A DNA stretch of 35,171 nucleotides from Lentisphaeria bacterium (GTDB lineage: Bacteria; Verrucomicrobiota; Lentisphaeria; Victivallales; UBA1829): contig JAGAEF010000335.1 of the NCBI GenBank assembly GCA_017613255.1, positions 1 through 35,171 on the forward strand, read 5' to 3'. A program made the translations under genes and the position numbers. This document shows positions 17,742-34,307 of this stretch, one piece after another (position 1 is the first letter of the stretch; each line of letters begins with the position of its first letter). Below the pieces are notes generated by a model. The model searched no databases. It saw only the letters and a program-made list of their open reading frames with translations, and was not told the DNA's origin.

Positions 17742-20700
17742 ATGACGAAGAAGAAGACCGCAGGCATCATCAGACTGGAAGAAAGAGTGCTTTTCGAAGC
17801 CGCCGCCGCTCCCGAGATCGCCGCGCTTGTTGCCGCCGAAGGGCAGGAAGGCGGGGACGGAAACGGAGAGGATGCGTCTTCCGATAACGATAATCTGGAA
17901 AAGACCGCCGCGGCGGCCGCCCTTGCCGCGGGTCCCGACGGCGCCGCCATCGGGGATGCCCCCGTGACGGAGAACGGCGTGGAAACTGCCGAGGGCGTGG
18001 GGGAGGATGCCGGGAACGATGGGGATTCTTCTTCCGACGATTCCGGAGATGCCGACGATGCCGGGCAGGCGCAGGAAGCGCTTCTTCCCGATCCTGTGGA
18101 AGGTCTGGAGATCGGGAACACGGATTCCGTGGTGGACGGCACGCCTGCGGCCTCCGCGGACGATCTGGATCTCGATGATCCCTCCTCCATCGTCATCGAA
18201 AACGGCAGCAGCGAAGTCATCACCGTGGAAGGGAATTCTTCCGCCGAAGCGGATCAGGCGGAGCCTGACGCAGAAGAGATCGCCGCCGAGATCAACGCCA
18301 ATTCCGCCGCCGCGGCAGCGGAGGCTGCGGAAGCGGCGGATGGTTCTTCCGAAGCGGCCCCGGAGCGGCACGAGCTGGTCATCGTCAACGCCACCACAGA
18401 TAATCTGGATGCGCTTCTCGGCGAAGTGGAAGAGGGGCGGGACGTTCTTGTTCTGGAAGCCGATTCCGCCGATCCTCTGGCGGACATCCAGGCCTATATG
18501 GAGGGGAAGGATTACACCTATGACGCCGTGCATATCGTGACCCACGGCAATCAATCCGGGCTTCTTCTGGGCGGAAGTCTCATTGAGGACGGTTCTTCCT
18601 TCGGCGTGATGAAAAGTTCCCTTTCCGACGGCGCGGATATTTTGATCTACGGCTGCAACACGGCTGCCGGGGAAGCGGGACACTCCTTCCTGCAGGACAT
18701 TGCCGACGCCACCGGAGCGGACATTGCCGCCTCCACGGATATGACCAGCTCCTCCCACTTCGGCGGCAACTGGAATCTGGAGTACGCCATCGGCGACGTG
18801 AATGTCGATTCCCTGACGGTTTCCGATGCCTGGGTGGGAAAACTGGCTACTATTAACATTGACGGCAAGGGAGGCACCGAAGGTGTTTACAAGGACCTGA
18901 ATGATTATTGGACGAAGAACAAACTTACCCCGGGTTCCCTGTACGAATTCGATACCGTCATACTCATGGCCGATGTCACGGAAAGTTATACTGGAGATAT
19001 CAGCCTCTATGATGATAAGGGTGGTATATCCGGCGGGGAGGTCCGGTTCCTCTCCAACGGTGCAGACAGGTTTACCTACACGATTTCCGATTCCCAGACG
19101 ATTTATGTGGGCGGAAAAACCAACAGTGACTCCGAAGTGCCCCTTGCTTTGGGATACGCTTCCGGGGCGAACAACGTGGCCATCAAGGGGACCATTGCCG
19201 TAGGCTTGAATGACACGCTCTACCTGAACAAGTCTGTAATTACGGGAACCGTCGGGCTTGGAGAAAATGCGCTTCTTTCCACGGAAGGGGGCTTTCTCAA
19301 GGCATCCGTCCAGAGTCTGAACATCGTTGCCAACACTTACGCAACCATCAACAATATCGATCTGTCCGTGTTGCGGAATCTGACGGATGCCACTGCCAAC
19401 GGCTGTGAACTGCGGATCGGCGATGGGGCCTCCGTAAATGTGGAAATCGCCGCGACCTTTACCAAGGGAACGATCACTCTTGGCGACAATACCCAATTCG
19501 GCACCAAATCCGGAACGGTAAACTACCTTACACTCGGCGATGATGTCACGCTCAAACTTCTGAATTACAACGGTACGCCGCTTCACGGCGAGGTCAGCGT
19601 GACCCATGATGTTGCCGTTTCCGGAACGACCGTCACCATGAACGACTTCTCTCTTCTCGGCACGGTGAATCTTTCCAACGCGGGGGAGATCAAAGGTACA
19701 TCCGGAGAGCTGGGCACGCTTCGTGTCATCGGAACGGGCACAGTTACCAACAAAGCTCTTTCGGCGGACAACCTTTCTTCCAACGGCGCCGTCACGCTGA
19801 CCGTGGGGACAGGCGGCAAGCTGATCGTCGGAAGGGAAATCGACTACAGCGACGATACCATCGTCCTTGATTCGGGAACCTTCGGCGCCAAAGGCAACCT
19901 GAAGACTCTGGACATAAACGGGACCGGCACCCTGACAGGCAGCGAGCTTGCCATAACCGATACCGTAGACGTGGATGCGGGAGAAAGTCTGAGCCTGCTC
20001 GACGATTCCTACATTTCCGGTACCGTGGCGCTTTCCGGCGCCATAACCGGAAATTCCGGAAGCATCAGAACCCTTGTCGTGAACACCTCCGGGGAAAGAA
20101 CGATCAACAACAGTGATCTGACCGTCACGGAGCTGGACGGCAGCAGCGGAACGGTGACGTTGACCGTTCAGGGCGGTCTGACCGTCCCCTCCAGCGGCCA
20201 GTTCGATTTTGGGGACGATACCATCCATCTCAACGGCGGTTCTCTTACGGCGTACGGCACATTGGATAAGCTGACCATAGGCGCCAACGGCGGAACTCTG
20301 AAAGATGGAGATCTCACGGTCGGCGATGCCGCCGGGATCACTATTGATTACGCTGCGGACGTGTACGTCGAGGGAAATGCGAAACTGACAGCCGCTTCTC
20401 TGGTAAACAACGGGACTATCGCCGGGAGCGGGGCCGGGGCCGTTCTGGATTTTACCGGGGATGTGACCAACTCCGGCACGATGGCCGACAGCGTATCGTT
20501 GCGCATCACCGGGGATCTGACCAATACGGTTACCGGCGTTATCGGGCCCGTGTTTTCCGTTTCGGGAAATGTGGATAACTCCGGCTGGGTGGACGTGATC
20601 CGTGAAGTGGGAGGCGATCTCGTCAACCGGATCGGCGGGACCATCATGGAACAGGGAAAAGTTTCGGGCGTTCTGGACAACCTCGGGTATATCGGCACGC

Positions 20701-23700
20701 TGTACAACGTTGCGGATCCCACCAAGGTGAATAACAACGGGACCATCGACACGCTGATGATTACTGTTACCGGGGAAAATGCGGCCACGGGACTTACCTT
20801 CACCACGGTCAATGAGGCCTTCGACGTGCTTGCCAATCCGGGTTCCGCCCAGTCGATCAACGGCAACGATCCTTTGAGCTACGGGTTCAGTTTCGCCCTC
20901 AATCCCTATGTGTATTCCGACAGCGATACCTTCCGCGCCGACAACGACGTGGTCAGCCTTGAGAAGGCCACCACCCTTACCGCGGGTTCCGGTCAGACCA
21001 AGGACATCGTTCTTGATACCACACTGCAGTTCGCCAGCATGCCCGCCGCCGCTTCCACGGTGATCGGCTATAGCCTCTACGGGACGGCGACCCTTACGGA
21101 TCTTATCATCGGCAGCGGCGTTTCCGTGACGCTGAAAGGGGCCTCCTCCACCTACACCTTCGATAATGTGGGCGTCAAGATCGCCAATGGCGGGACGCTC
21201 AAAGCGGACAAGACCAATCTTGTTTTTACCGGGAACGGCGTAAGGGCAACCTACGAGTTCCTCTCCTCCGACGCCTATCTGATGACCGGAGCCGTGTACG
21301 GAACCGACGGCATGGGCGGCGTCTCCGTTTTCAACGAAGGCAAAATGAGCATTGACGGTTCCAAGGTGACCTTCACGAGGGAAGCTCTGGCGGGAACGCT
21401 CTTCCCCTCCATCGACAGATACCTGACCTACGGGATCAAGAACGACGGCACCGACGCTTCCATCACCATTTCCGGGGGAAGTGAGATCACTTTCGATCTG
21501 GGAAGCGCGGCGGACAACATCGACTCCCGGGCGGATGACGCATACGCCGTCTGGAATGTCAACGGACTTCTCCGTGTGGAGGACTCCACTATTACCATAA
21601 ACACCCACCGCGCCGGAGCCTTCGACGGGATCGATCCCGTCAAGAGCGTGGCATTGTTCAACGAAAGCGCCTTGAAGGACAAAAACGCCGTGGACGGACT
21701 GAGTTTTTCCGACGCTATGGCGGATGCGGATGTGGCAGTGGAGAATTCCAAGATCCTTGCCAACGGGAACCGGGAGGGCGTTTACGGCGTTCTCAACTCC
21801 GGGGACGCCTACGTCGAAGACTCCTGGATTCTTGCCCAGGGCGAGTATATCGTAAGCGGGATCAAGAACAACGCTTCCGGCCATATGGAGTTCAATGTGG
21901 CGGATCCCAACTATACCACAGAGGCTGCTCTGGATAAATATTTTGCCGACAAAGGGGTCGATTTCGCCAAGTACCAGGATAACCCCGGCGGACTGATCTC
22001 CGACTACATTCTCCCCGGAGTAAGCGGGAAAAACATCACCGGAACCTCCGGAAATGTGGAAAACACCTCCTCCGTCTTCAATGCGGGACAGCTTTATATC
22101 CATTACTCGGGTTCGGTTCCGGAAGGAAAGAATCCCTGGGTCGGGAGCAGTACCGGCTACACCTATGTGGATGTGCCCGTCCTTCTCCTCTACGGCGAAG
22201 TTTATACGCTGGGAACCGCCGAGGACGGACATGAACTCGTCCTTACCGACCTCAACCACGTTACCGTGGCAGGCAAGAGCAATGAGGCAACTTCCCTCAT
22301 CGAAAGCAGCCGTACCGCCACCGTCCTGCTTAACGACGTTTCCGCAACGACGCTGGTCAACGACGGTTCCCAGGTCCATGTGACCGGGACCTACGACAAG
22401 AGCATCTTTTCCGTGTACAGTGCAACAAGCAATCTGCTCAACTGGACGAATACGGTCGTTTCCCGCATCGAAAACAATGCGGAAAGTTCCCTCTACTCCA
22501 TGAAGGACGGCGAAATGTTCTTCGGGATCGCCGCCACGGAGGGAGACTCCAATTTGTTCCATGTGAACAAGACACGCTACGACAACCGGGTGGAATTCGC
22601 CTCCGATGTCTCCTACACCATCCTCAACGAAGCCCGCATGACCATCAGCAACTTCATGGGGCTGGGAACGGATGAAAACCATCCGGTCTCCATCAAGAAC
22701 ACCGACAGAGCGCAGACCGTCAACGGGAGCGATTACCGCGTCATCGGCACGATGCTGATCGAAAATCCCATCGATACGCAGAAGGAAGTCAATGGACAGA
22801 TGGTGAACGTTACCGATGCCAACGGAAATCCCATCTCTCTTACGGACGACAACGGCAACGTGACCATGTACGTGGACTACCGCAGCGGAACGATTTTCGA
22901 GGCGGATCCCGCCGTGCAGGATCTGGGAATCGTGAATACCGGAGCGGTCCTCACCATCAACAATGTGAATGTCCTCAACACCAATGCTTCTTCCGTGGCC
23001 GTCACCAACCACGGCGGCGTATTCAGCATGACAAGCGGTTCTCTTATGGGGACCTATTCCGGGCTGGACAACATCGAACGGGTTTCCGCGACGGTCGGTG
23101 CCGGTTCCGATTACGCGATCACCCTGAAAATCGAGCAGAGCACCGCCAATTTGAACGATATCACCGTTATCGCCGGAAGCAATTTCGGCGTGAGGAATAC
23201 GGGGGAATTCAACCTGAACAACACCGATACGGCGCTTATCACCAATGATTTCAATCTTGCCGTGGAAAAAGGCTCCGTTCTGGATGCCCTGTTCACCCCC
23301 TTCCGGGTCGCCGATATTCCCGGGGCGAGCGAGGCCATCGGTATTGCCAACTACACCATTGCCTCCGCCATGTGGATGGAGACCATTGCCGCCGCCAACG
23401 GGGTCCCGGTACGAGTCCACTTCACCATTGACGTTTCTTCCTACCGGAATTACACTCCCTACTCCTACGAAGACCTCACCGGCGCGAAAACCACGGCTGC
23501 CGCATCATGGAAGGTGAATCTGCTGAACACGGGCGGGGATCTTCTGGGGACCAAATCCTACACCCCCTCCAGCCACGCGGTCGAAGGCAGTTCTCCCGCG
23601 ATAACGCACTATGCCTACGGCAAGAACTTCACCAACTCCACCGTCAAGGCGGACAATGTGCAGTTCCGTCTTTCTCAGGCGATGGCCGACACCATTGCCG

Positions 23701-26700
23701 TTTACAACGAGGCAACCGCAACGGTTACTTCCATCAAATCCTTCGAGAACTATCTGGATTCCATCCACAACGTGGGGATCGACAACAAGAAAGCCGCTTC
23801 TTCGTGGGAAGCCTGGCTTTACGTCAATTCCAACTGGGACGGCACGGATCTGAATATGCTGAAGGACACCGGGTACTTCATCAACGGGGCTGACGGCGGG
23901 ACCGACAGTTCCGGGACCGAGGGCGAAGGGGACGGAGACGGCGAAGACGATATTGTGACTACCGGCTCTGACGGCCAGAAAAGAGAATCCCGCGCCTATC
24001 TCTCCTTCAGCTGCAAGATCAATGCTTCCAGCGTGGAAAACTCCGACATCCTCACTCTGGAAGGTCTTGACGGAACAGGTGAAATGTCCATAAGCGGTTC
24101 GTCCTACCGGGTGACACCCAGTGCGACGCTGACCCTGCTGAACCTTATCGTCACCTCCCCGGAAAACACCACCTATGCCATTGAGAACAGGGGTACGCTC
24201 ATTGTCGAGAATACCTTCGAGCTCCTGGAAAACGGGAGCACCAATTCCAGCGGTGCCTATATCAGCGCGAAGAAGGGAACGGCCATTCTGAACAAAGCCG
24301 ATCTCACCCTGATCAACGCCACCGTCAAGAACAGTGTCAACGGCATCGAGAACGCCGGGGGGACCCTGTACATGGTCAACTCCCAGCTTCTGGACAACTC
24401 CGGCTGGGCGTTGAAAAGCACCTCCGGCCAGAGTTATATTCTGGACAGCTCCATCGTCTTCAACGCCAACGGCGTCAACGTTGAAGGCGGCACCGTCACG
24501 CTGGAAAACTCCATTCTCGTCAACAGCGGCATGAAGACCGACGGAACCTATTTTACCGCCGACGGCGTCAACTACAGCGGCAACATCAATGCGGACAACA
24601 CAAACGTGGTGGGCAGTGCCGACGATGCGGCCTCCAATACGCTTCTGCTGGGAAGGATATACACGTACAACAAGGAGACCGGCTCCTACTTCCAGTCGGT
24701 GGAAATCAACCGCCTGAATCTGTCCATCTCTTCCGCCAATCCCGCGCTTTCCGGCGGCGTTTATATTGCCGTGAAATTCGATGAGGAAGGAGCCGTCACC
24801 GGGTACGAAATCAGTACGGATTCCTCGGGATTCAGTGAAGGCTACGTCTTTGTCTCAACCGACAAGGACGGGTACAGCAGACTGCCCGATACGGGAAGTT
24901 CCTCCATCATCATCGGCGCCACAAGCTACCACACCGTTGTGCCGCCCGAACCCCCCGAGCCTCCCGGACCGGTCACCTATGTGGTCAACACCTTTACCGA
25001 CGATGTCAACCCGGCCAACTCCCTCTTCTCCCTGCGGGAAGCCTTCGCTCTCGCGGAGACCTCTCAGGGCAGCAGCTTTACGGTAACCTTCGACGTGTCC
25101 GCCCTGCTGGCCGAAGGCGGCTACACCTTCGTGCTGAACAACGTCATCGGCATGGCCACCGGATCCATCGTCGTGGACTTCGCCGCCCTCGCGTCCTCCC
25201 TGGGACACGATGTGGTGATTACCATCAGCGATACCTTCGCCAGTGATACGATGTTCGGCTTCGGCAACACGGCCGGGGTCACCGGTCCCGACGTGAGTAT
25301 TTCCGGCGTCACCATCGACGGCTCCAAGTCCACCACCGGCAACGTGGCCGTGATCCTGGCAGGCGCCACGCTCTCCCTCAAAGACGTGAACGTGTACGGC
25401 GGCGCAGGATACTATCTGGAAATCGAAAACTCCGGCAGCTCTTCCTCCAGCTCCTCCTCCACGTCCACCACTGACTCGGAAAGCGAATCCACTGCGGACT
25501 CCTCCAGCACGGATTCCAGTACGGACTCCTCCGGCAGTGATCTCAAGAGCGGGTATTACGGCGGAGCGTTCCTCGTCATGGGGACTCTTTCCATCAGCGG
25601 AGAGGGCGTCTACTCCGGCGGCAGCAAGGTTACCCGCGGCGGCATCATCGCCTCCGAGAACGGCATCGTGAATGTCACGGGCAACATCACCTTCCAGAGC
25701 GGCAAAGCTTCCGAAATGGGCGGATTCCTCCTCCAGGCCGGGGAAAAATCGGTCAGCAACATCGGAGACGAGAACAGCAACATCATCATTACGGGAATGG
25801 ATGCCCCCGAAGGCGCGGTGGTCGCCCAGCTGCACGGCGAAACCAACCTCATCAACGTGGTGGTCCGGAACAACGGCAAGATGGATTCCGAAACCCATAC
25901 CGCCGCTTCCAAGGAGCTTTTCGCCGCCACCGGGGATTTCACGGTGGTCAACGCTTCCATCTACGACAACACCGCGGAAGCGATCTTCGGCCTCTACAGC
26001 GTGGAGGATGGTTCCAGCGAAGAATTTCTGGAAAGAGTCTTCCTCGTGGACTCCAGTCTCGTTCAAAACTCCTCGGGATTCGTGCAGGACAAGGACGGCA
26101 ACCTGGAGTACGACAGCGACGGCTACGGAAAGCTGGATTACGCCACGAAGCTCTGGTCGGAGGGCAAAAAGACGGTGGTAACGGACAGCAACGGGAATAC
26201 CACCACCACGTATACGGGCGGCTCCAAGGGAGACGTCTATATCCTCAACAGCCTGATCGATGTGGATCTGAACGGGGATTACGAGGGCATCAATTTGTCC
26301 ATCGTCAGCACCCTTACCGGAGAAAAGGGCTGGGAAGCCTTCTCCTATGACGGGTACGGCGAACTTCAGCTGGATCCCGAAACGGGCGTGCCCATCATTA
26401 CCGACAGCGCGTCCGCCGGGGGAGTCATTGCCGCGGTCTATACCGATTCCAACGGAAGGCGGGCGCTGGCCTACCGGACGCTGGATGATACCGTCTGGCG
26501 GGGAATGGACGGCGCCGCCGTCTCCCAGTTCGAGCCGGACATCGACAGCATCATCCGCTCCGATGCCATCGGAGAAATCTCCGTTTCCGGAAACGGCAGT
26601 CACCGTTACCTGGCCCAGAGCAATATCACCATCGGCGCCTACTCCCGCGCCTATGCCGATACTCTGACGGCCACGGGGATCGTCGTGACGACCAACATCG

Positions 26701-29369
26701 ACGAACTGGACGGCAACATGGATATCTCCCTGCGGGAGGCCGCCAAGTACGCCAGAAAGCTCTATGAGCAGACCGGAACGGTCTTCACCATCACCTTTGC
26801 CGACGGGCTCCAGCAGCGGGGGGATGTGCTTCTGGATTCCACGCTGGTCCTGGATTCCCCCGTGACCATCGACGGCGGTTCGGACATCACCGTTTCCGCG
26901 GGCGGCTTCATAGGCGACTCCATGTTCCGCGTCACGGGGACGGAGATCACTCTTACGAACATTACCCTGAACGGGGAAAACAACGTGGCCTACGATGAGA
27001 ACGGCAGTATCGCCGGACTCGCCGCTCAGGGCGGCATTCTCCATGTGGAAAAGGGCGGTTCCATTTCCGTTTCCGGCGTGACCTTCGAAAACGGTTACGC
27101 CTGGGAGGGCGGCGCAGTCTACAATCAGGGAGAATTCGCCGTTACGGGAAGCTCGTTTACCGACAACAGCGCCCTTCTGGGCGGCGCCATCTACAGCGAA
27201 AGCAGTCTCACGGTGACGGATAGCGTGTTCTCCGGCAACTATGCTTACGACGGTGCGGCGATCTACGGAAAGGGCAGCGTCAGCGTGAGTTCTTCCCAGT
27301 TCACCGGCAACGATGGAACCCTTTCGGTGGTCAGGGGGACGGACGTGAATGTTTCCGGAAGCACGTTTGCTTCCAACAGCGCCGGAAATGCCATGGTGAA
27401 CGGGACGAACAGCGTGAACGTTTCCGGAAGCACGTTCAATGCCAATACGGCGGAAATTCTGGTCGGCGCTCCCAGCGTGAACGTTTCCGGAAGCACGTTC
27501 AGTGCCAACGAAACGACGGTCCTTCTGGACGGGACGACCCTGAACGTTTCCGGAAGCACGTTTACGTCCAACAAGGCGGAAAACCTCCTTGTGGGTTCCA
27601 GCGTAAATGTAACGGGAAGCACCTTTACGGGCAATGAGGCCGCGGAGAATCTCCTTGCGGGTTCCAGTGTGAACGTTTCCGGAAGCACGTTTACGTCCAA
27701 CAAGGCGGAAAATCTTCTTTCCGGGGCCGACATCAGCGTTTCCGGAAGCACGTTTGCCTCCAATGAACTTTCCGAAGCTCTGGCGGATGCCTCCGGGAAC
27801 GTGAGCGTTGCGGGAAGCACGTTCACGTCCAACAAGGCGGAAAATCTTCTTTCCGGGACGAGTGTGAGCGTTTCCGGCAGCACCTTTACCGAAAACGCCT
27901 TCGACTATCTCATCAACGCCCCCGGGGACGTCCGGATCTCCGACAGCGCCTTCGTCCGGAACACGGCGGAGGAATCCCTCGTGAGCGGGGAGGCCCGGAT
28001 CACGGTTTCGGGAAGCCGCTTCGAAGACAACCGCGCCATGTGGGCCCTTCTGGAGACTGCCGGAGACGTGACGGTTTCGGGAAGCCGCTTCGAAGGCAAC
28101 AGCGTGGAGAACGGCTCCCTTGTCGATGCCTACGGCGCCGAAAGTTCCGTGAGCGTGACGAACAGCACCTTCGCAAATAACGAGGTTGCCGATGCCATTG
28201 TGTTCGCCACTGCCGGGATCTTCCTGGACGAAGTTTCCCTCACCAACAACATCGGCTCCTATGCCTTGCAGAGCGATGGCAACATCGCGGTCATTTCCAC
28301 GACCATTGCCGATACCGAGGGCGACGGGACCGTGAAGGTTTCCGCGGGAGAGAATGCCTACATCCTCAACTCCACGGTCGCGGATGTTTCCGGCGACGCG
28401 GGAGTTCTGGTGGAAGGAAGCAATGTTTATGTGGTGAACAGCATCGTGGTTTCCAACGATACGGCGGACGTGACCTCCGGGACGCTCTCCGCCGCCTACT
28501 CCTACATGAGCAGCGGAAGCGGCGACCATGTGACCGGTAACTGGAGTTACGACGATGCCTTTGCCGGAAACACCGTCTCCGCAGACGGCACGCTTCACCC
28601 GGTGGAGTCTCTTGCCTCCCAGCGCGGCTCCTTCGTCATGTATTCGGTGAATGGGGACGGCTCCCTCAACGTGGCCTACTCCGACACCTATTCGGATCAG
28701 GTCATTTCCACCGGATACTACTACGATCCGCGGGTGAACCAGAACTGGACGACCCTTACCGCCAGCGCTCCCGTCAACGGGACGGTGGTGCGGTATGCGC
28801 ATGAGCAGGAAGTCACCATGCCCGGCATAGGCTCCTACTGGAACGGCTCCTACTCCGTGGATTACGGACCCGGTCTCAACTCGGAATTCATCGATGCCTC
28901 CTACAACGGCGTGTTCGGGTACTACGGCATGAACAATTACGCTCTGGCCGTTTCCGGATTGTCCGGCGGCATTGCCCTTGCGGGCAGCATGATCTGGCCC
29001 GAGACGGTCTCCTTCGACCCGATTCGGGATGCGGGCACCCGTTCCGGATTCCGGGTCTCCGAGCGCATGGATCTGGGCGGCATCCCCTCCGCGGGAACGT
29101 ACATAACCGAAACGGTGGAGGCCTCCGGGGACGATCTGGAGAGCGAGTACTACATGACGCCCACCACCGCCGACGGGCTTCCTCTGATCCCCGAACAGAC
29201 CGCCGAAGAAGGCGATCTGGAACCCGAGGGACTGGAGGCGACCCTTGCGGAGATCTCCGAAAGCTTCGGAGACGGCGTGGAGAAGGTTGCTTCCCTCTTC
29301 AAGCACGCGGACGTGTTCAAGGACGACTTCGACAAGGCCCTTGAGGAGCTTCTGGGCATCAAGGCCTGA
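17742..29369 (+). CDS. Giant DUF4347 / LEPR-XLL-like beta-helix repeat protein (3875 residues)
   Basis: Probably a secreted or surface adhesin-like protein. In order: an N-terminal IIRLEERVLFEAAAAPE motif (about 10-26), matching the LEPR-XLL-type start of giant DUF4347 proteins; an acidic Ala/Asp/Glu/Ser linker (about 30-205); DUF4347 (about 207-376) with VTHGN (His268) and IYGCNTAAGEAG (Cys305); then more than 2000 residues of Thr/Gly/Asn-rich beta-helix-like rungs; an SLREA segment near residue 2430; a Ser/Thr/Asp spacer (about 2565-2602); a second SLREA segment near 2996; fourteen ~21-residue rungs (3180-3492) of the type NVSGSTFTSN; and a C-terminal region with an acidic stretch and a final amphipathic helix (DDFDKALEELLGIKA). 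No classical signal peptide, sortase motif, autotransporter barrel or PEP-CTERM was seen. The large antisense open frames here are a composition effect. Terminator at 29392. Confidence 0.9.
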   Translation: MTKKKTAGIIRLEERVLFEAAAAPEIAALVAAEGQEGGDGNGEDASSDNDNLEKTAAAAALAAGPDGAAIGDAPVTENGVETAEGVGEDAGNDGDSSSDDSGDADDAGQAQEALLPDPVEGLEIGNTDSVVDGTPAASADDLDLDDPSSIVIENGSSEVITVEGNSSAEADQAEPDAEEIAAEINANSAAAAAEAAEAADGSSEAAPERHELVIVNATTDNLDALLGEVEEGRDVLVLEADSADPLADIQAYMEGKDYTYDAVHIVTHGNQSGLLLGGSLIEDGSSFGVMKSSLSDGADILIYGCNTAAGEAGHSFLQDIADATGADIAASTDMTSSSHFGGNWNLEYAIGDVNVDSLTVSDAWVGKLATINIDGKGGTEGVYKDLNDYWTKNKLTPGSLYEFDTVILMADVTESYTGDISLYDDKGGISGGEVRFLSNGADRFTYTISDSQTIYVGGKTNSDSEVPLALGYASGANNVAIKGTIAVGLNDTLYLNKSVITGTVGLGENALLSTEGGFLKASVQSLNIVANTYATINNIDLSVLRNLTDATANGCELRIGDGASVNVEIAATFTKGTITLGDNTQFGTKSGTVNYLTLGDDVTLKLLNYNGTPLHGEVSVTHDVAVSGTTVTMNDFSLLGTVNLSNAGEIKGTSGELGTLRVIGTGTVTNKALSADNLSSNGAVTLTVGTGGKLIVGREIDYSDDTIVLDSGTFGAKGNLKTLDINGTGTLTGSELAITDTVDVDAGESLSLLDDSYISGTVALSGAITGNSGSIRTLVVNTSGERTINNSDLTVTELDGSSGTVTLTVQGGLTVPSSGQFDFGDDTIHLNGGSLTAYGTLDKLTIGANGGTLKDGDLTVGDAAGITIDYAADVYVEGNAKLTAASLVNNGTIAGSGAGAVLDFTGDVTNSGTMADSVSLRITGDLTNTVTGVIGPVFSVSGNVDNSGWVDVIREVGGDLVNRIGGTIMEQGKVSGVLDNLGYIGTLYNVADPTKVNNNGTIDTLMITVTGENAATGLTFTTVNEAFDVLANPGSAQSINGNDPLSYGFSFALNPYVYSDSDTFRADNDVVSLEKATTLTAGSGQTKDIVLDTTLQFASMPAAASTVIGYSLYGTATLTDLIIGSGVSVTLKGASSTYTFDNVGVKIANGGTLKADKTNLVFTGNGVRATYEFLSSDAYLMTGAVYGTDGMGGVSVFNEGKMSIDGSKVTFTREALAGTLFPSIDRYLTYGIKNDGTDASITISGGSEITFDLGSAADNIDSRADDAYAVWNVNGLLRVEDSTITINTHRAGAFDGIDPVKSVALFNESALKDKNAVDGLSFSDAMADADVAVENSKILANGNREGVYGVLNSGDAYVEDSWILAQGEYIVSGIKNNASGHMEFNVADPNYTTEAALDKYFADKGVDFAKYQDNPGGLISDYILPGVSGKNITGTSGNVENTSSVFNAGQLYIHYSGSVPEGKNPWVGSSTGYTYVDVPVLLLYGEVYTLGTAEDGHELVLTDLNHVTVAGKSNEATSLIESSRTATVLLNDVSATTLVNDGSQVHVTGTYDKSIFSVYSATSNLLNWTNTVVSRIENNAESSLYSMKDGEMFFGIAATEGDSNLFHVNKTRYDNRVEFASDVSYTILNEARMTISNFMGLGTDENHPVSIKNTDRAQTVNGSDYRVIGTMLIENPIDTQKEVNGQMVNVTDANGNPISLTDDNGNVTMYVDYRSGTIFEADPAVQDLGIVNTGAVLTINNVNVLNTNASSVAVTNHGGVFSMTSGSLMGTYSGLDNIERVSATVGAGSDYAITLKIEQSTANLNDITVIAGSNFGVRNTGEFNLNNTDTALITNDFNLAVEKGSVLDALFTPFRVADIPGASEAIGIANYTIASAMWMETIAAANGVPVRVHFTIDVSSYRNYTPYSYEDLTGAKTTAAASWKVNLLNTGGDLLGTKSYTPSSHAVEGSSPAITHYAYGKNFTNSTVKADNVQFRLSQAMADTIAVYNEATATVTSIKSFENYLDSIHNVGIDNKKAASSWEAWLYVNSNWDGTDLNMLKDTGYFINGADGGTDSSGTEGEGDGDGEDDIVTTGSDGQKRESRAYLSFSCKINASSVENSDILTLEGLDGTGEMSISGSSYRVTPSATLTLLNLIVTSPENTTYAIENRGTLIVENTFELLENGSTNSSGAYISAKKGTAILNKADLTLINATVKNSVNGIENAGGTLYMVNSQLLDNSGWALKSTSGQSYILDSSIVFNANGVNVEGGTVTLENSILVNSGMKTDGTYFTADGVNYSGNINADNTNVVGSADDAASNTLLLGRIYTYNKETGSYFQSVEINRLNLSISSANPALSGGVYIAVKFDEEGAVTGYEISTDSSGFSEGYVFVSTDKDGYSRLPDTGSSSIIIGATSYHTVVPPEPPEPPGPVTYVVNTFTDDVNPANSLFSLREAFALAETSQGSSFTVTFDVSALLAEGGYTFVLNNVIGMATGSIVVDFAALASSLGHDVVITISDTFASDTMFGFGNTAGVTGPDVSISGVTIDGSKSTTGNVAVILAGATLSLKDVNVYGGAGYYLEIENSGSSSSSSSSTSTTDSESESTADSSSTDSSTDSSGSDLKSGYYGGAFLVMGTLSISGEGVYSGGSKVTRGGIIASENGIVNVTGNITFQSGKASEMGGFLLQAGEKSVSNIGDENSNIIITGMDAPEGAVVAQLHGETNLINVVVRNNGKMDSETHTAASKELFAATGDFTVVNASIYDNTAEAIFGLYSVEDGSSEEFLERVFLVDSSLVQNSSGFVQDKDGNLEYDSDGYGKLDYATKLWSEGKKTVVTDSNGNTTTTYTGGSKGDVYILNSLIDVDLNGDYEGINLSIVSTLTGEKGWEAFSYDGYGELQLDPETGVPIITDSASAGGVIAAVYTDSNGRRALAYRTLDDTVWRGMDGAAVSQFEPDIDSIIRSDAIGEISVSGNGSHRYLAQSNITIGAYSRAYADTLTATGIVVTTNIDELDGNMDISLREAAKYARKLYEQTGTVFTITFADGLQQRGDVLLDSTLVLDSPVTIDGGSDITVSAGGFIGDSMFRVTGTEITLTNITLNGENNVAYDENGSIAGLAAQGGILHVEKGGSISVSGVTFENGYAWEGGAVYNQGEFAVTGSSFTDNSALLGGAIYSESSLTVTDSVFSGNYAYDGAAIYGKGSVSVSSSQFTGNDGTLSVVRGTDVNVSGSTFASNSAGNAMVNGTNSVNVSGSTFNANTAEILVGAPSVNVSGSTFSANETTVLLDGTTLNVSGSTFTSNKAENLLVGSSVNVTGSTFTGNEAAENLLAGSSVNVSGSTFTSNKAENLLSGADISVSGSTFASNELSEALADASGNVSVAGSTFTSNKAENLLSGTSVSVSGSTFTENAFDYLINAPGDVRISDSAFVRNTAEESLVSGEARITVSGSRFEDNRAMWALLETAGDVTVSGSRFEGNSVENGSLVDAYGAESSVSVTNSTFANNEVADAIVFATAGIFLDEVSLTNNIGSYALQSDGNIAVISTTIADTEGDGTVKVSAGENAYILNSTVADVSGDAGVLVEGSNVYVVNSIVVSNDTADVTSGTLSAAYSYMSSGSGDHVTGNWSYDDAFAGNTVSADGTLHPVESLASQRGSFVMYSVNGDGSLNVAYSDTYSDQVISTGYYYDPRVNQNWTTLTASAPVNGTVVRYAHEQEVTMPGIGSYWNGSYSVDYGPGLNSEFIDASYNGVFGYYGMNNYALAVSGLSGGIALAGSMIWPETVSFDPIRDAGTRSGFRVSERMDLGGIPSAGTYITETVEASGDDLESEYYMTPTTADGLPLIPEQTAEEGDLEPEGLEATLAEISESFGDGVEKVASLFKHADVFKDDFDKALEELLGIKA
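25434..25548 (+). repeat. Low-complexity Ser/Thr/Asp spacer inside the giant gene
   Basis: Encodes a run of Ser followed by Ser/Thr/Asp/Glu mixtures, at DNA level repeated TCC/AGC/TCT triplets. It separates two beta-helix blocks and is likely a flexible linker; slippage could change its length. Confidence 0.7.
27279..28217 (+). repeat. Array of fourteen ~63-bp in-frame repeats (beta-helix rungs)
   Basis: Units encode a (V/I)xVSGSTFxxNxAxxLL... rung. Unit starts at 27345, 27414, 27477, 27540, 27603, 27669, 27732, 27801 and 27864 are spaced 69, 63, 63, 63, 63, 63/66 and 69 bp; the core GTTTCCGGAAGCACGTT recurs almost unchanged. The units at 27540, 27669 and 27801 also share the following TCCAACAAGGCGGAAAA. 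Later units (27930-28217) have drifted. Confidence 0.9.
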
Positions 29370-32999: not shown

Positions 33000-33644
33000 A
33001 TGATCAACCGTATTCTGTTTCAGGGGGATTCCATTACCGACGTGGGAAGAGCAAGGGAGGATAATCTTCCTCTCGGACAGGGCCTGGGGACCGGCTACCC
33101 TCAGCTGGTGACCGCCCGCCTCATCACCGATTATCCTTCCAGACCCTGGATCATCGAGAACAAGGGGATCAGCGGGAACCGGGTGGTGGATCTGTACGCC
33201 CGCTGGAAGATCGACGCCCTGAATTTGCATCCCCAGCTCATCAGCATCCTCATCGGGGTCAACGATACCTGGCATGAATTCGGCAGGAAGAACGGAGTGG
33301 AGGTCCCCCGGTACGAAATGGTCTACAGAGAGCTTCTCCGCTGGACGAAAGAGGTCCTGCCTGAGGTCAAACTCGTTCTCATGGAGCCCTTCTGCTTCTG
33401 CTTCGGAGCGGTGGGGCCGGACTGGGTGCCGGAAGTGAAGGAAAGAGGTAAAATCGTCAAAAAACTTGCGGAAGAGTTCGACGCTCTTTTCCTTCCCTGT
33501 CAGGAGATCCTGGACAAGGCGCTGGAAAGGGCTCCTCAGGAGTTCTGGCTCCGGGACGGCGTGCATCCGGCTCTGGCCGGGCACCAGCTTCTGGCGGACG
33601 CCTGGATAGAGGCGACCAAAGAGCTTCTTCACGGCTCCCGGTAA
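33000..33644 (+). CDS. SGNH/GDSL-type hydrolase (first copy)
   Basis: 214 residues. Esterase or lipase-like hydrolase with the four SGNH blocks: GDSITD with nucleophile Ser11, ISGNR (Gly), IGVNDTW (Asn) and LRDGVHP (Asp/His). No signal peptide, so cytoplasmic as predicted. The YxxL.. and CFCFGA segment (FCFCFG, residues about 131-136) is Cys/Phe-rich and shared with the next gene. GAGGAGG lies 5 bases before the ATG. Probably acts on acetylated sugars; the substrate is unknown. Co-transcribed with dapA. Confidence 0.85.
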   Translation: MINRILFQGDSITDVGRAREDNLPLGQGLGTGYPQLVTARLITDYPSRPWIIENKGISGNRVVDLYARWKIDALNLHPQLISILIGVNDTWHEFGRKNGVEVPRYEMVYRELLRWTKEVLPEVKLVLMEPFCFCFGAVGPDWVPEVKERGKIVKKLAEEFDALFLPCQEILDKALERAPQEFWLRDGVHPALAGHQLLADAWIEATKELLHGSR

Positions 33645-33674: not shown

Positions 33675-34307
33675 ATGATCAGTCGCATTCTGTTTCAGGG
33701 AGACTCCATCACGGACGCGGACAGGTCGCGGGAGGAGAATCTCCCCCTCGGCAAGGGGCTGGGGACCGGCTACCCTCATCTGGCGGTCTCCCGGCTCATC
33801 ACCGACGATCCCGGCAGACCCTGGGTCATCTGGAACCGTGGCATAAGCGGGAACCATGTCCCCGCCCTGTACGGCCGCTGGGAAAAAGACGCTCTGGACC
33901 TGAAGCCGGATCTCATCAGCATCCTCATCGGGATCAACGACACCAACAGAAAGTTCGGTGTGGAGATCTCCCGGTTCGAAAAGGTGTATTCCGACCTGCT
34001 TTCCTGGACGAAAAAGACCCTTCCGGAAACGGAAATGGTCCTTATGGAGCCCTTCTGCTTCTGTTTCGGAGAGGTGGACGAAGCGCGGGAAAAGGATGTG
34101 AAGGAAAGAGGAAAGATCGTGAAAAAACTTGCGGAGGAGTTCCATGCCCTCTTTCTGCCTTGCCAGAGCATTCTGGACAAGGCGCTGGAACGGGCGCCCA
34201 AGGAGTTCTGGCTCCGGGACGGGATGCATCCCAACCCGGCGGGGCATCAGCTTCTGGCGGACGCCTGGATAGAGGCCGCGAAGGACCTTCTCGGCCTTTC
34301 CCGGTAG
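33675..34307 (+). CDS. SGNH/GDSL-type hydrolase (second copy)
   Basis: 210 residues, close paralogue of the preceding gene: both share FQGDSIT, LGTGYP, MEPFCFCFG, VKERGKIVKKLAEEF and AGHQLLADAWIEA. Catalytic blocks intact (Ser11, ISGNH, IGINDT, DGMHP). Main differences lie in the middle loops (WEKDALDL versus WKIDALNL; a 4-residue deletion near VEISRFEKV and another before VKERG). Ribosome site GAGGAG upstream of the ATG. The tandem pair looks like a recent duplication after which the loops diverged; the substrates may therefore differ. Confidence 0.85.
   Translation: MISRILFQGDSITDADRSREENLPLGKGLGTGYPHLAVSRLITDDPGRPWVIWNRGISGNHVPALYGRWEKDALDLKPDLISILIGINDTNRKFGVEISRFEKVYSDLLSWTKKTLPETEMVLMEPFCFCFGEVDEAREKDVKERGKIVKKLAEEFHALFLPCQSILDKALERAPKEFWLRDGMHPNPAGHQLLADAWIEAAKDLLGLSR

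What the first reader, a model, noticed from the sequence alone, without database searches (positions are those of the whole stretch)
18360..18870. DUF4347 domain has a His-Gly / Cys layout like clan CD peptidases
VTHGN (His268) followed by IYGCNTA (Cys305) resembles the HG...C pattern of CHAT and gingipain-type peptidases (for example SACNTA in CHAT proteins). If active, it could cleave its own acidic N-terminal linker or process the repeat region after export. This is pattern-based, not an established function of DUF4347.
Basis: inference. Interest (0 to 1): 0.6.

Follow-up and report, generated by a model that had tools for sequence, protein, structure and literature searches.

The report
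Caspase-like domain in giant surface protein
A domain of officially unknown function near the start of a giant, probably exported bacterial protein has the fold and the paired histidine and cysteine of caspase-like protein-cutting enzymes, so it is probably a built-in protease that processes its own protein, although no cutting has been shown.

Summary
P0001 (window 17742-29369, 3875 aa) carries Pfam DUF4347 at aa 212-358, with His268-Gly269 (18543-18548) and Cys305 (18654-18656). In a sample found by profile rather than by motif, Cys305 is 42/42 and His268 39/42 (26/26 in single-copy proteins). Second, upstream DUF4347 copies in related proteins keep the fold signature but have lost both residues (0/16).

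AlphaFold2 gives a confident model (pLDDT 93) with the caspase/haemoglobinase strand order; His and Cys follow strands 3 and 4 directly. For a relative with typical spacing, 46 of the 50 best PDB matches are clan CD. The best match of both models is Tce1 (9qpe), deposited as a DUF4347 protein; its published putative dyad His186/Cys240 aligns residue for residue with His268/Cys305. At sequence level the nearest peptidase family is C80, the self-cutting toxin domains, below Pfam's cut-off, rather than CHAT or gingipain.

I conclude it is a divergent clan CD cysteine peptidase domain, probably active and probably self-processing. Activity and cleavage site are not shown. An unexpected finding: a short LEPR-XLL-like motif near the N-terminus is linked to DUF4347 (20 of 22 sites in 41 related genomes), suggesting one N-terminal module.

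The parts
17742..29369 (+). P0001, giant protein of 3875 aa carrying DUF4347 near its N-terminus, then repeats, CSLREA signatures and a beta-helix region
   Evidence: Translation; Pfam and NCBIfam hits
17775..17803 (+). LEPR-XLL-like N-terminal motif, LEERVLFEAA (aa 12-21)
   Evidence: 20 of 22 such DNA sites in 41 related genomes lie just upstream of a DUF4347 domain, reversed-pattern control 0; present by strict pattern in 65 of 80 DUF4347 loci elsewhere; LEPR-8K model over cut-off in relatives L003, L018, L050, L059, L071, L075, below cut-off in the window lineage
17805..18362 (+). Acidic, alanine-rich linker (aa 22-207), probably disordered
   Evidence: Sequence; linker of relative L081 modelled at pLDDT 38-46
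18363..18869 (+). DUF4347 domain with caspase/haemoglobinase-type fold (aa 208-376)
   Evidence: PF14252 E 1.8e-34; AF2 pLDDT 92.9, pTM 0.89; Foldseek
18543..18548 (+). His268-Gly269, predicted catalytic histidine and adjacent glycine, just after strand 3
   Evidence: Conservation; aligned with His186 of Tce1
18636..18656 (+). DILIYGC: strand 4 followed by Cys305, predicted nucleophile
   Evidence: Cys 102/102 and 42/42; aligned with Cys240 of Tce1
18732..18782 (+). Other near-invariant positions of the fold: Ser331, Asp333, Trp344, Glu347 (between strands 5 and 6)
   Evidence: Conservation, retained in upstream copies that lost the dyad
18831..18848 (+). Domain end WVGKLA (aa 364-369), family consensus [WYF]xGxL(A); possible but unproven Leu-Ala cleavage site
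   Evidence: Aromatic 78/79, Leu 70, Ala 42; same-genus relative has WNYKFD instead
29223..29366 (+). C-terminal tail with FKxDFDxALExLLG, shared by DUF4347 giants of the same family

Best explanation
DUF4347 in this protein is a clan CD (caspase-like) cysteine peptidase domain, closest to the self-cutting C80 domains and to Tce1, with His268 and Cys305 as the dyad. It sits next to an LEPR-XLL-like motif at the start of a giant, probably exported repeat protein. The likeliest role is intramolecular processing: it cuts its own polypeptide near the domain's borders, separating the N-terminal LEPR/linker part from the repeat passenger once the protein has left the cytoplasm. Shown by computation: family membership, fold, dyad conservation, loss of the dyad in second copies, linkage to the LEPR motif. 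Inferred: activity, self- rather than trans-cleavage, the site, and the timing.
For: DUF4347 E 3e-32. AF2 model pLDDT 92.9: strands and helices in caspase order, small hairpin between strand 3 and helix 3, dyad two residues after strands 3 and 4; these are the clan CD criteria in PMC4357240. Foldseek: top hit Tce1 9qpe_G E 1.9e-5; a relative's model gives 46 of 50 top hits in clan CD (41 caspase, 4 legumain, Tce1; 4 are dehydrogenases). 15 of 81 members hit Peptidase_C80, best E 5e-4, in a consistent colinear register where examined. Tce1's proposed dyad His186/Cys240 falls on His268/Cys305 by residue numbering. Cys 42/42, His 39/42 in main copies; 0/16 in upstream copies that keep other signature residues where these can be aligned. 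Caspase-like domains in polymorphic toxins and large surface proteins are already proposed to be autoprocessing (PMC3482391).
Against: No activity shown for any DUF4347 protein; Tce1 had no measurable effect in E. coli or yeast. C80 hits are all below Pfam's cut-off, and the window's own domain gives none. Profile comparison with CHAT and C14 is not significant. Three main copies have lost His while keeping Cys, as has L005. The window lineage has a 6-7 residue shortening between His and Cys. No conserved cleavage site proven; the Leu-Ala at the domain end is Phe-Asp in the same-genus relative.
Confidence: 0.6

Rival explanations
1. A clan CD peptidase that is active but cuts other proteins (neighbour cells, host or competitor surface proteins), like gingipains or as proposed for the T6SS effectors Tce1 and Tce2.
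For: The nearest solved relative, Tce1, is an injected T6SS cargo; mutation of the predicted active-site Cys of the related Tce2 removes yeast toxicity.
Against: Here the domain is a fixed N-terminal part of giant repeat proteins, linked to one N-terminal motif in 20 of 22 cases, which fits cis-processing better.
Confidence: 0.15
2. A catalytically dead caspase-like fold kept as a structural or peptide-binding module, for example a plug, cap or LEPR-binding element of the export apparatus.
For: Upstream copies in relatives keep the fold but lack the dyad; some main copies lost His but keep Cys; PMC3482391 notes dead caspase repeats with presumed structural roles.
Against: In single-copy proteins such as this one His and Cys are 26/26, which a purely structural role does not need.
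Confidence: 0.2
3. Not clan CD: a Rossmann or flavodoxin-like alpha/beta domain whose HG and C motifs resemble clan CD by accident.
For: Foldseek of the window model also lists short-chain dehydrogenases and flavodoxins at E around 0.003-0.02.
Against: Typical-spacing model is dominated by caspases and legumain; top hit in both is Tce1; flavodoxin profile control is the worst of three (P 0.26 against 0.0034 CHAT, 0.063 C14); C80 matches are colinear.
Confidence: 0.04

Closest known systems
Tce1 (PA0256), P. aeruginosa H3-T6SS cargo, PDB 9qpe chain G
   Same: Deposited as a DUF4347 protein; best fold match (E 1.9e-5, TM 0.60); putative dyad His186/Cys240 aligns with His268/Cys305; same YGC block
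   Different: Small 310-aa injected effector, about 20% identity, no repeat passenger, no LEPR motif seen; His-Cys spacing 54 against 37
Peptidase family C80 (cysteine protease domains of MARTX and large clostridial toxins)
   Same: Weak but repeated colinear Pfam matches (15 of 81 relatives); Gly just before Cys; H-C spacing 45 (TcdB) or 49 (MARTX) against 43-44; built into giant secreted proteins
   Different: Below Pfam cut-off; Tyr instead of Val two before Cys; InsP6 site and beta-flap not identified; domain lies at the N-terminus, not in the interior; known C80 autoprocessing site lies N-terminal to the domain
CHAT (PF12770)
   Same: HG...C order; local alignment at the His motif
   Different: Profile comparison not significant (P 0.0034, probability 10%); single member hit at 11.6 bits against cut-off 24
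Caspases and legumain (C14, C13)
   Same: Fold and dyad position
   Different: No significant sequence relation to C14 (C13 not tested); one polypeptide, no small-subunit processing expected
LEPR-XLL (NF012209) giant proteins
   Same: Many DUF4347 proteins carry this N-terminal motif
   Different: Window motif (LEERVLFEAA) is a divergent version under the model's cut-off

Membership tests
DUF4347 (PF14252) | Profile match over gathering score | tested here: met
   112-119 bits against 24.6
Clan CD | His then Cys dyad at C-terminal ends of strands 3 and 4 | tested here: met
   Strand 3 = aa 260-266, His268; strand 4 = aa 294-303, Cys305 in the model; criterion from PMC4357240
Clan CD | Glycine adjacent to catalytic His | tested here: met
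   Gly269, 101/102 and 37/42
Clan CD | Caspase/haemoglobinase core: strands 1-4, helices 1-3, small sheet between strand 3 and helix 3 | tested here: met
   Model element order; Foldseek list
Clan CD | Side chains of His and Cys close enough to act together | not testable with these tools
   Model coordinates are not returned; alignment to the Tce1 dyad is indirect support
Clan CD | Peptidase activity with strict P1 preference | not testable with these tools
   Needs an assay
Peptidase C80 | Match over Pfam gathering score | tested here: not met
   Best relative 20.8 bits against 23.8; window none
Peptidase C80 | InsP6 pocket and beta-flap | not tested
   No coordinates or binding data
Peptidase C80 | Leu P1 autocleavage site N-terminal to the domain | tested here: inconclusive
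   By reading the sequence, no Leu in the window for roughly 60 residues before the domain; a Leu-Ala lies at the domain's end but is not kept in the same genus
CHAT (PF12770) | Match over gathering score | tested here: not met
   Window none; best member seen 11.6 bits against 24
Peptidase C14 | Profile similarity | tested here: not met
   hhalign P 0.063, probability 1%
Gingipain C25 | Profile similarity | tested here: inconclusive
   No C25 model among the Pfam hits listed for the 81 domains (25 of 40 families shown); no C25 profile comparison was made

The most novel reading that the evidence does not exclude
LEPR-XLL motif plus DUF4347 is one widespread N-terminal module of giant exported proteins: a built-in caspase-fold protease that matures or releases the giant protein, with the LEPR motif as its recognition or cleavage element. 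Dead second copies in many Lentisphaerota would form a pseudo-protease/protease pair.
Probability: 0.3. Interest if true: 0.75.

Novelty: new variant of a known kind. Interest (0 to 1): 0.52.

Why it matters
DUF4347 is widespread in giant proteins of Proteobacteria, Verrucomicrobiota/Lentisphaerota, cyanobacteria, Nitrospira and others, yet is still labelled unknown; I found four open-access papers that name it and none that gives its function. Recognising it as a caspase-fold peptidase gives a concrete, testable mechanism for how these very large surface proteins are matured or released, with two residues to mutate. It also gives a possible role for the equally unexplained LEPR-XLL motif.

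Tried and rejected
CHAT and gingipain as nearest relatives: profile comparison with CHAT and C14 not significant, no C25 model among the hits shown. A C80 alignment from the same phylum for direct profile comparison: no C80 matches in 231 genomes and no control rang; C80 toxins themselves were not fetched. LEPR motif docked in the active site: in the relative L081 it is modelled at pLDDT 61-65, above the linker (38-46) but not convincing. Leu-Ala at the domain end as the cleavage site: consensus in the family but Phe-Asp in the same-genus relative, so kept only as a candidate. Cleavage of the acidic linker: no conserved motif seen. Type I secretion partner: the own genome (81% complete) has no HlyD over the cut-off though the sister genome G001 does, and some DUF4347-bearing relatives lack it too; no secretion genes in the window among the genes scanned, so the export route stays open. 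Phage relatives by sequence: none.

Full report
1. What is there. The frame 17742-29369 (+) encodes P0001, 3875 aa. Pfam finds DUF4347 at aa 212-358 (E 3.1e-32) and a beta-helix near the C-terminus; NCBIfam finds CSLREA signatures. The window belongs to an unnamed, 81% complete genome; some of its closest named matches are Lentisphaeria, and I infer Lentisphaerota. This is its only DUF4347.

2. Is the pattern meaningful. In 102 domains Cys305 and Ser331 are invariant, Asp299 and Gly269 99%, Tyr303 98%, His268 97%. Part of that set was found with seeds containing the motifs, so I repeated the count on domains found only by the PF14252 profile in related genomes: main copies Cys 42/42, His 39/42; in single-copy proteins 26/26 and 26/26. 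In the window's genus the domain is under purifying selection (dN/dS about 0.20, dS near saturation).

3. A natural control. Many Lentisphaerota relatives carry a second DUF4347 copy upstream of the main one. These upstream copies have lost both residues (0/16 His, 0/16 Cys) while keeping Ser331, Trp344 and Glu347 wherever these can be aligned. So the fold signature and the dyad can be separated, and the dyad is kept in the main copy. Against a simple story, three main copies (L115, L116, L095), and also L005, have lost the His but keep the Cys.

4. Fold. AlphaFold2 with 81 sequences gives pLDDT 92.9, pTM 0.89. Element order is strand-helix-strand-helix-strand(His)-hairpin-helix-strand(Cys)-helix-strand-strand. 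Strand 3 is aa 260-266 with His268 right after it; strand 4 is aa 294-303 with Cys305 right after it. These are the clan CD criteria of PMC4357240. Foldseek's best PDB match is 9qpe chain G (E 1.9e-5), then a mixture of caspase-1 and unrelated alpha/beta proteins. For a relative with normal His-Cys spacing (L081), 46 of the 50 best matches are clan CD: 41 caspases, 4 legumain, 1 Tce1; the other four are dehydrogenases.

5. The solved relative. 9qpe chain G is named a DUF4347 domain-containing protein in the PDB copy. It is Tce1 (PA0256). Its authors proposed in 2026 that it is a cysteine protease with His186 and Cys240, by comparison with the toxin protease domain of family C80 (PMC13323088). 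In the chain these are positions 77 and 131, which align exactly with His268 and Cys305. Tce1 itself showed no activity in E. coli or yeast; for its relative Tce2, a Cys mutant lost yeast toxicity. The paper does not mention DUF4347.

6. Which peptidase family is nearest. 15 of 81 members give a weak Peptidase_C80 match, best E 5e-4; all those examined are in a consistent colinear register and all are below the gathering score. The His-Cys spacing is 43-44 in 80 relatives against 45 in TcdB and 49 in the MARTX domain (His91/Cys140). CHAT and C14 comparisons are not significant, though they rank above a flavodoxin control. I therefore file the domain as a divergent clan CD domain that is C80-like, not as a C80 member.

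7. Surroundings within the protein. aa 12-21 (LEERVLFEAA) resembles the LEPR-XLL motif. A DNA pattern for it finds 22 sites in 41 related genomes, of which 20 lie in front of a DUF4347 domain; the reversed pattern finds none. The two exceptions are G010:C18:38128 and G017:C323:5475. In proteobacteria and others 65 of 80 DUF4347 loci carry it by strict pattern, mostly 45-100 residues upstream, and the curated LEPR-8K model confirms it in six of eight tested. Several of the loci without it start with what looks like an ordinary signal peptide (for example L029, L057, L112), consistent with exported proteins. The family consensus ends with [WYF]xGxL(A) where the variable passenger starts. C80 proteases cut after Leu before a small residue at domain boundaries (PMC3153235), so Leu368-Ala369 is a candidate site, but it is Phe-Asp in the same-genus relative. 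The C-terminal tail is shared with other DUF4347 giants of the family.

8. Mechanism. Best supported: an in-chain caspase-fold protease that processes its own giant protein after export. The fold and dyad are well supported (about 0.95 and 0.85 in my judgement); activity about 0.7; self-processing about 0.5-0.6. Rivals are a protease with external targets, and a dead structural fold. Earlier work already placed caspase-like autoprocessing domains, some lacking the catalytic residues, in polymorphic toxins and large surface proteins (PMC3482391), so this is a new variant of a known kind, not a new category.

9. Limits. No coordinates were returned, so the side-chain distance was not measured. 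The related genomes in the unbiased set are all from one phylum. Pfam clan assignment and MEROPS could not be checked. The export route is unknown: HlyD is not over cut-off in this incomplete genome.

Noticed in passing
17775-17803; also L206-L226: LEPR-XLL-like motif linked to DUF4347 in related genomes (20 of 22 sites).
   Followed up: partly
L082, L114, L115, L102, L103, L117 and others: Upstream DUF4347 copies without the His/Cys dyad in Lentisphaerota; main copies L115, L116, L095 and L005 lost only the His.
   Followed up: yes
18543-18656 and L093: His-Cys spacing shortened to 37 residues in the window's genus, against 43-44 in all 80 other relatives of alignment A1.
   Followed up: partly
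29223-29366: C-terminal tail FKxDFDxALExLLG shared by DUF4347 giants; also a short similar stretch in three small open frames of G010. Possible sorting signal.
   Followed up: partly
24978-25043 (aa 2413-2434): CSLREA signature inside the giant protein; CSLREA-like or SLRxAI stretches also directly follow DUF4347 in several relatives (for example L019, L061, L070).
   Followed up: no
33000-33644 and 33675-34307: Two adjacent, similar GDSL-type esterase genes, probably a tandem duplication.
   Followed up: no
G010:C18:38128 and G017:C323:5475: LEPR-like motif without a detected DUF4347 domain.
   Followed up: no
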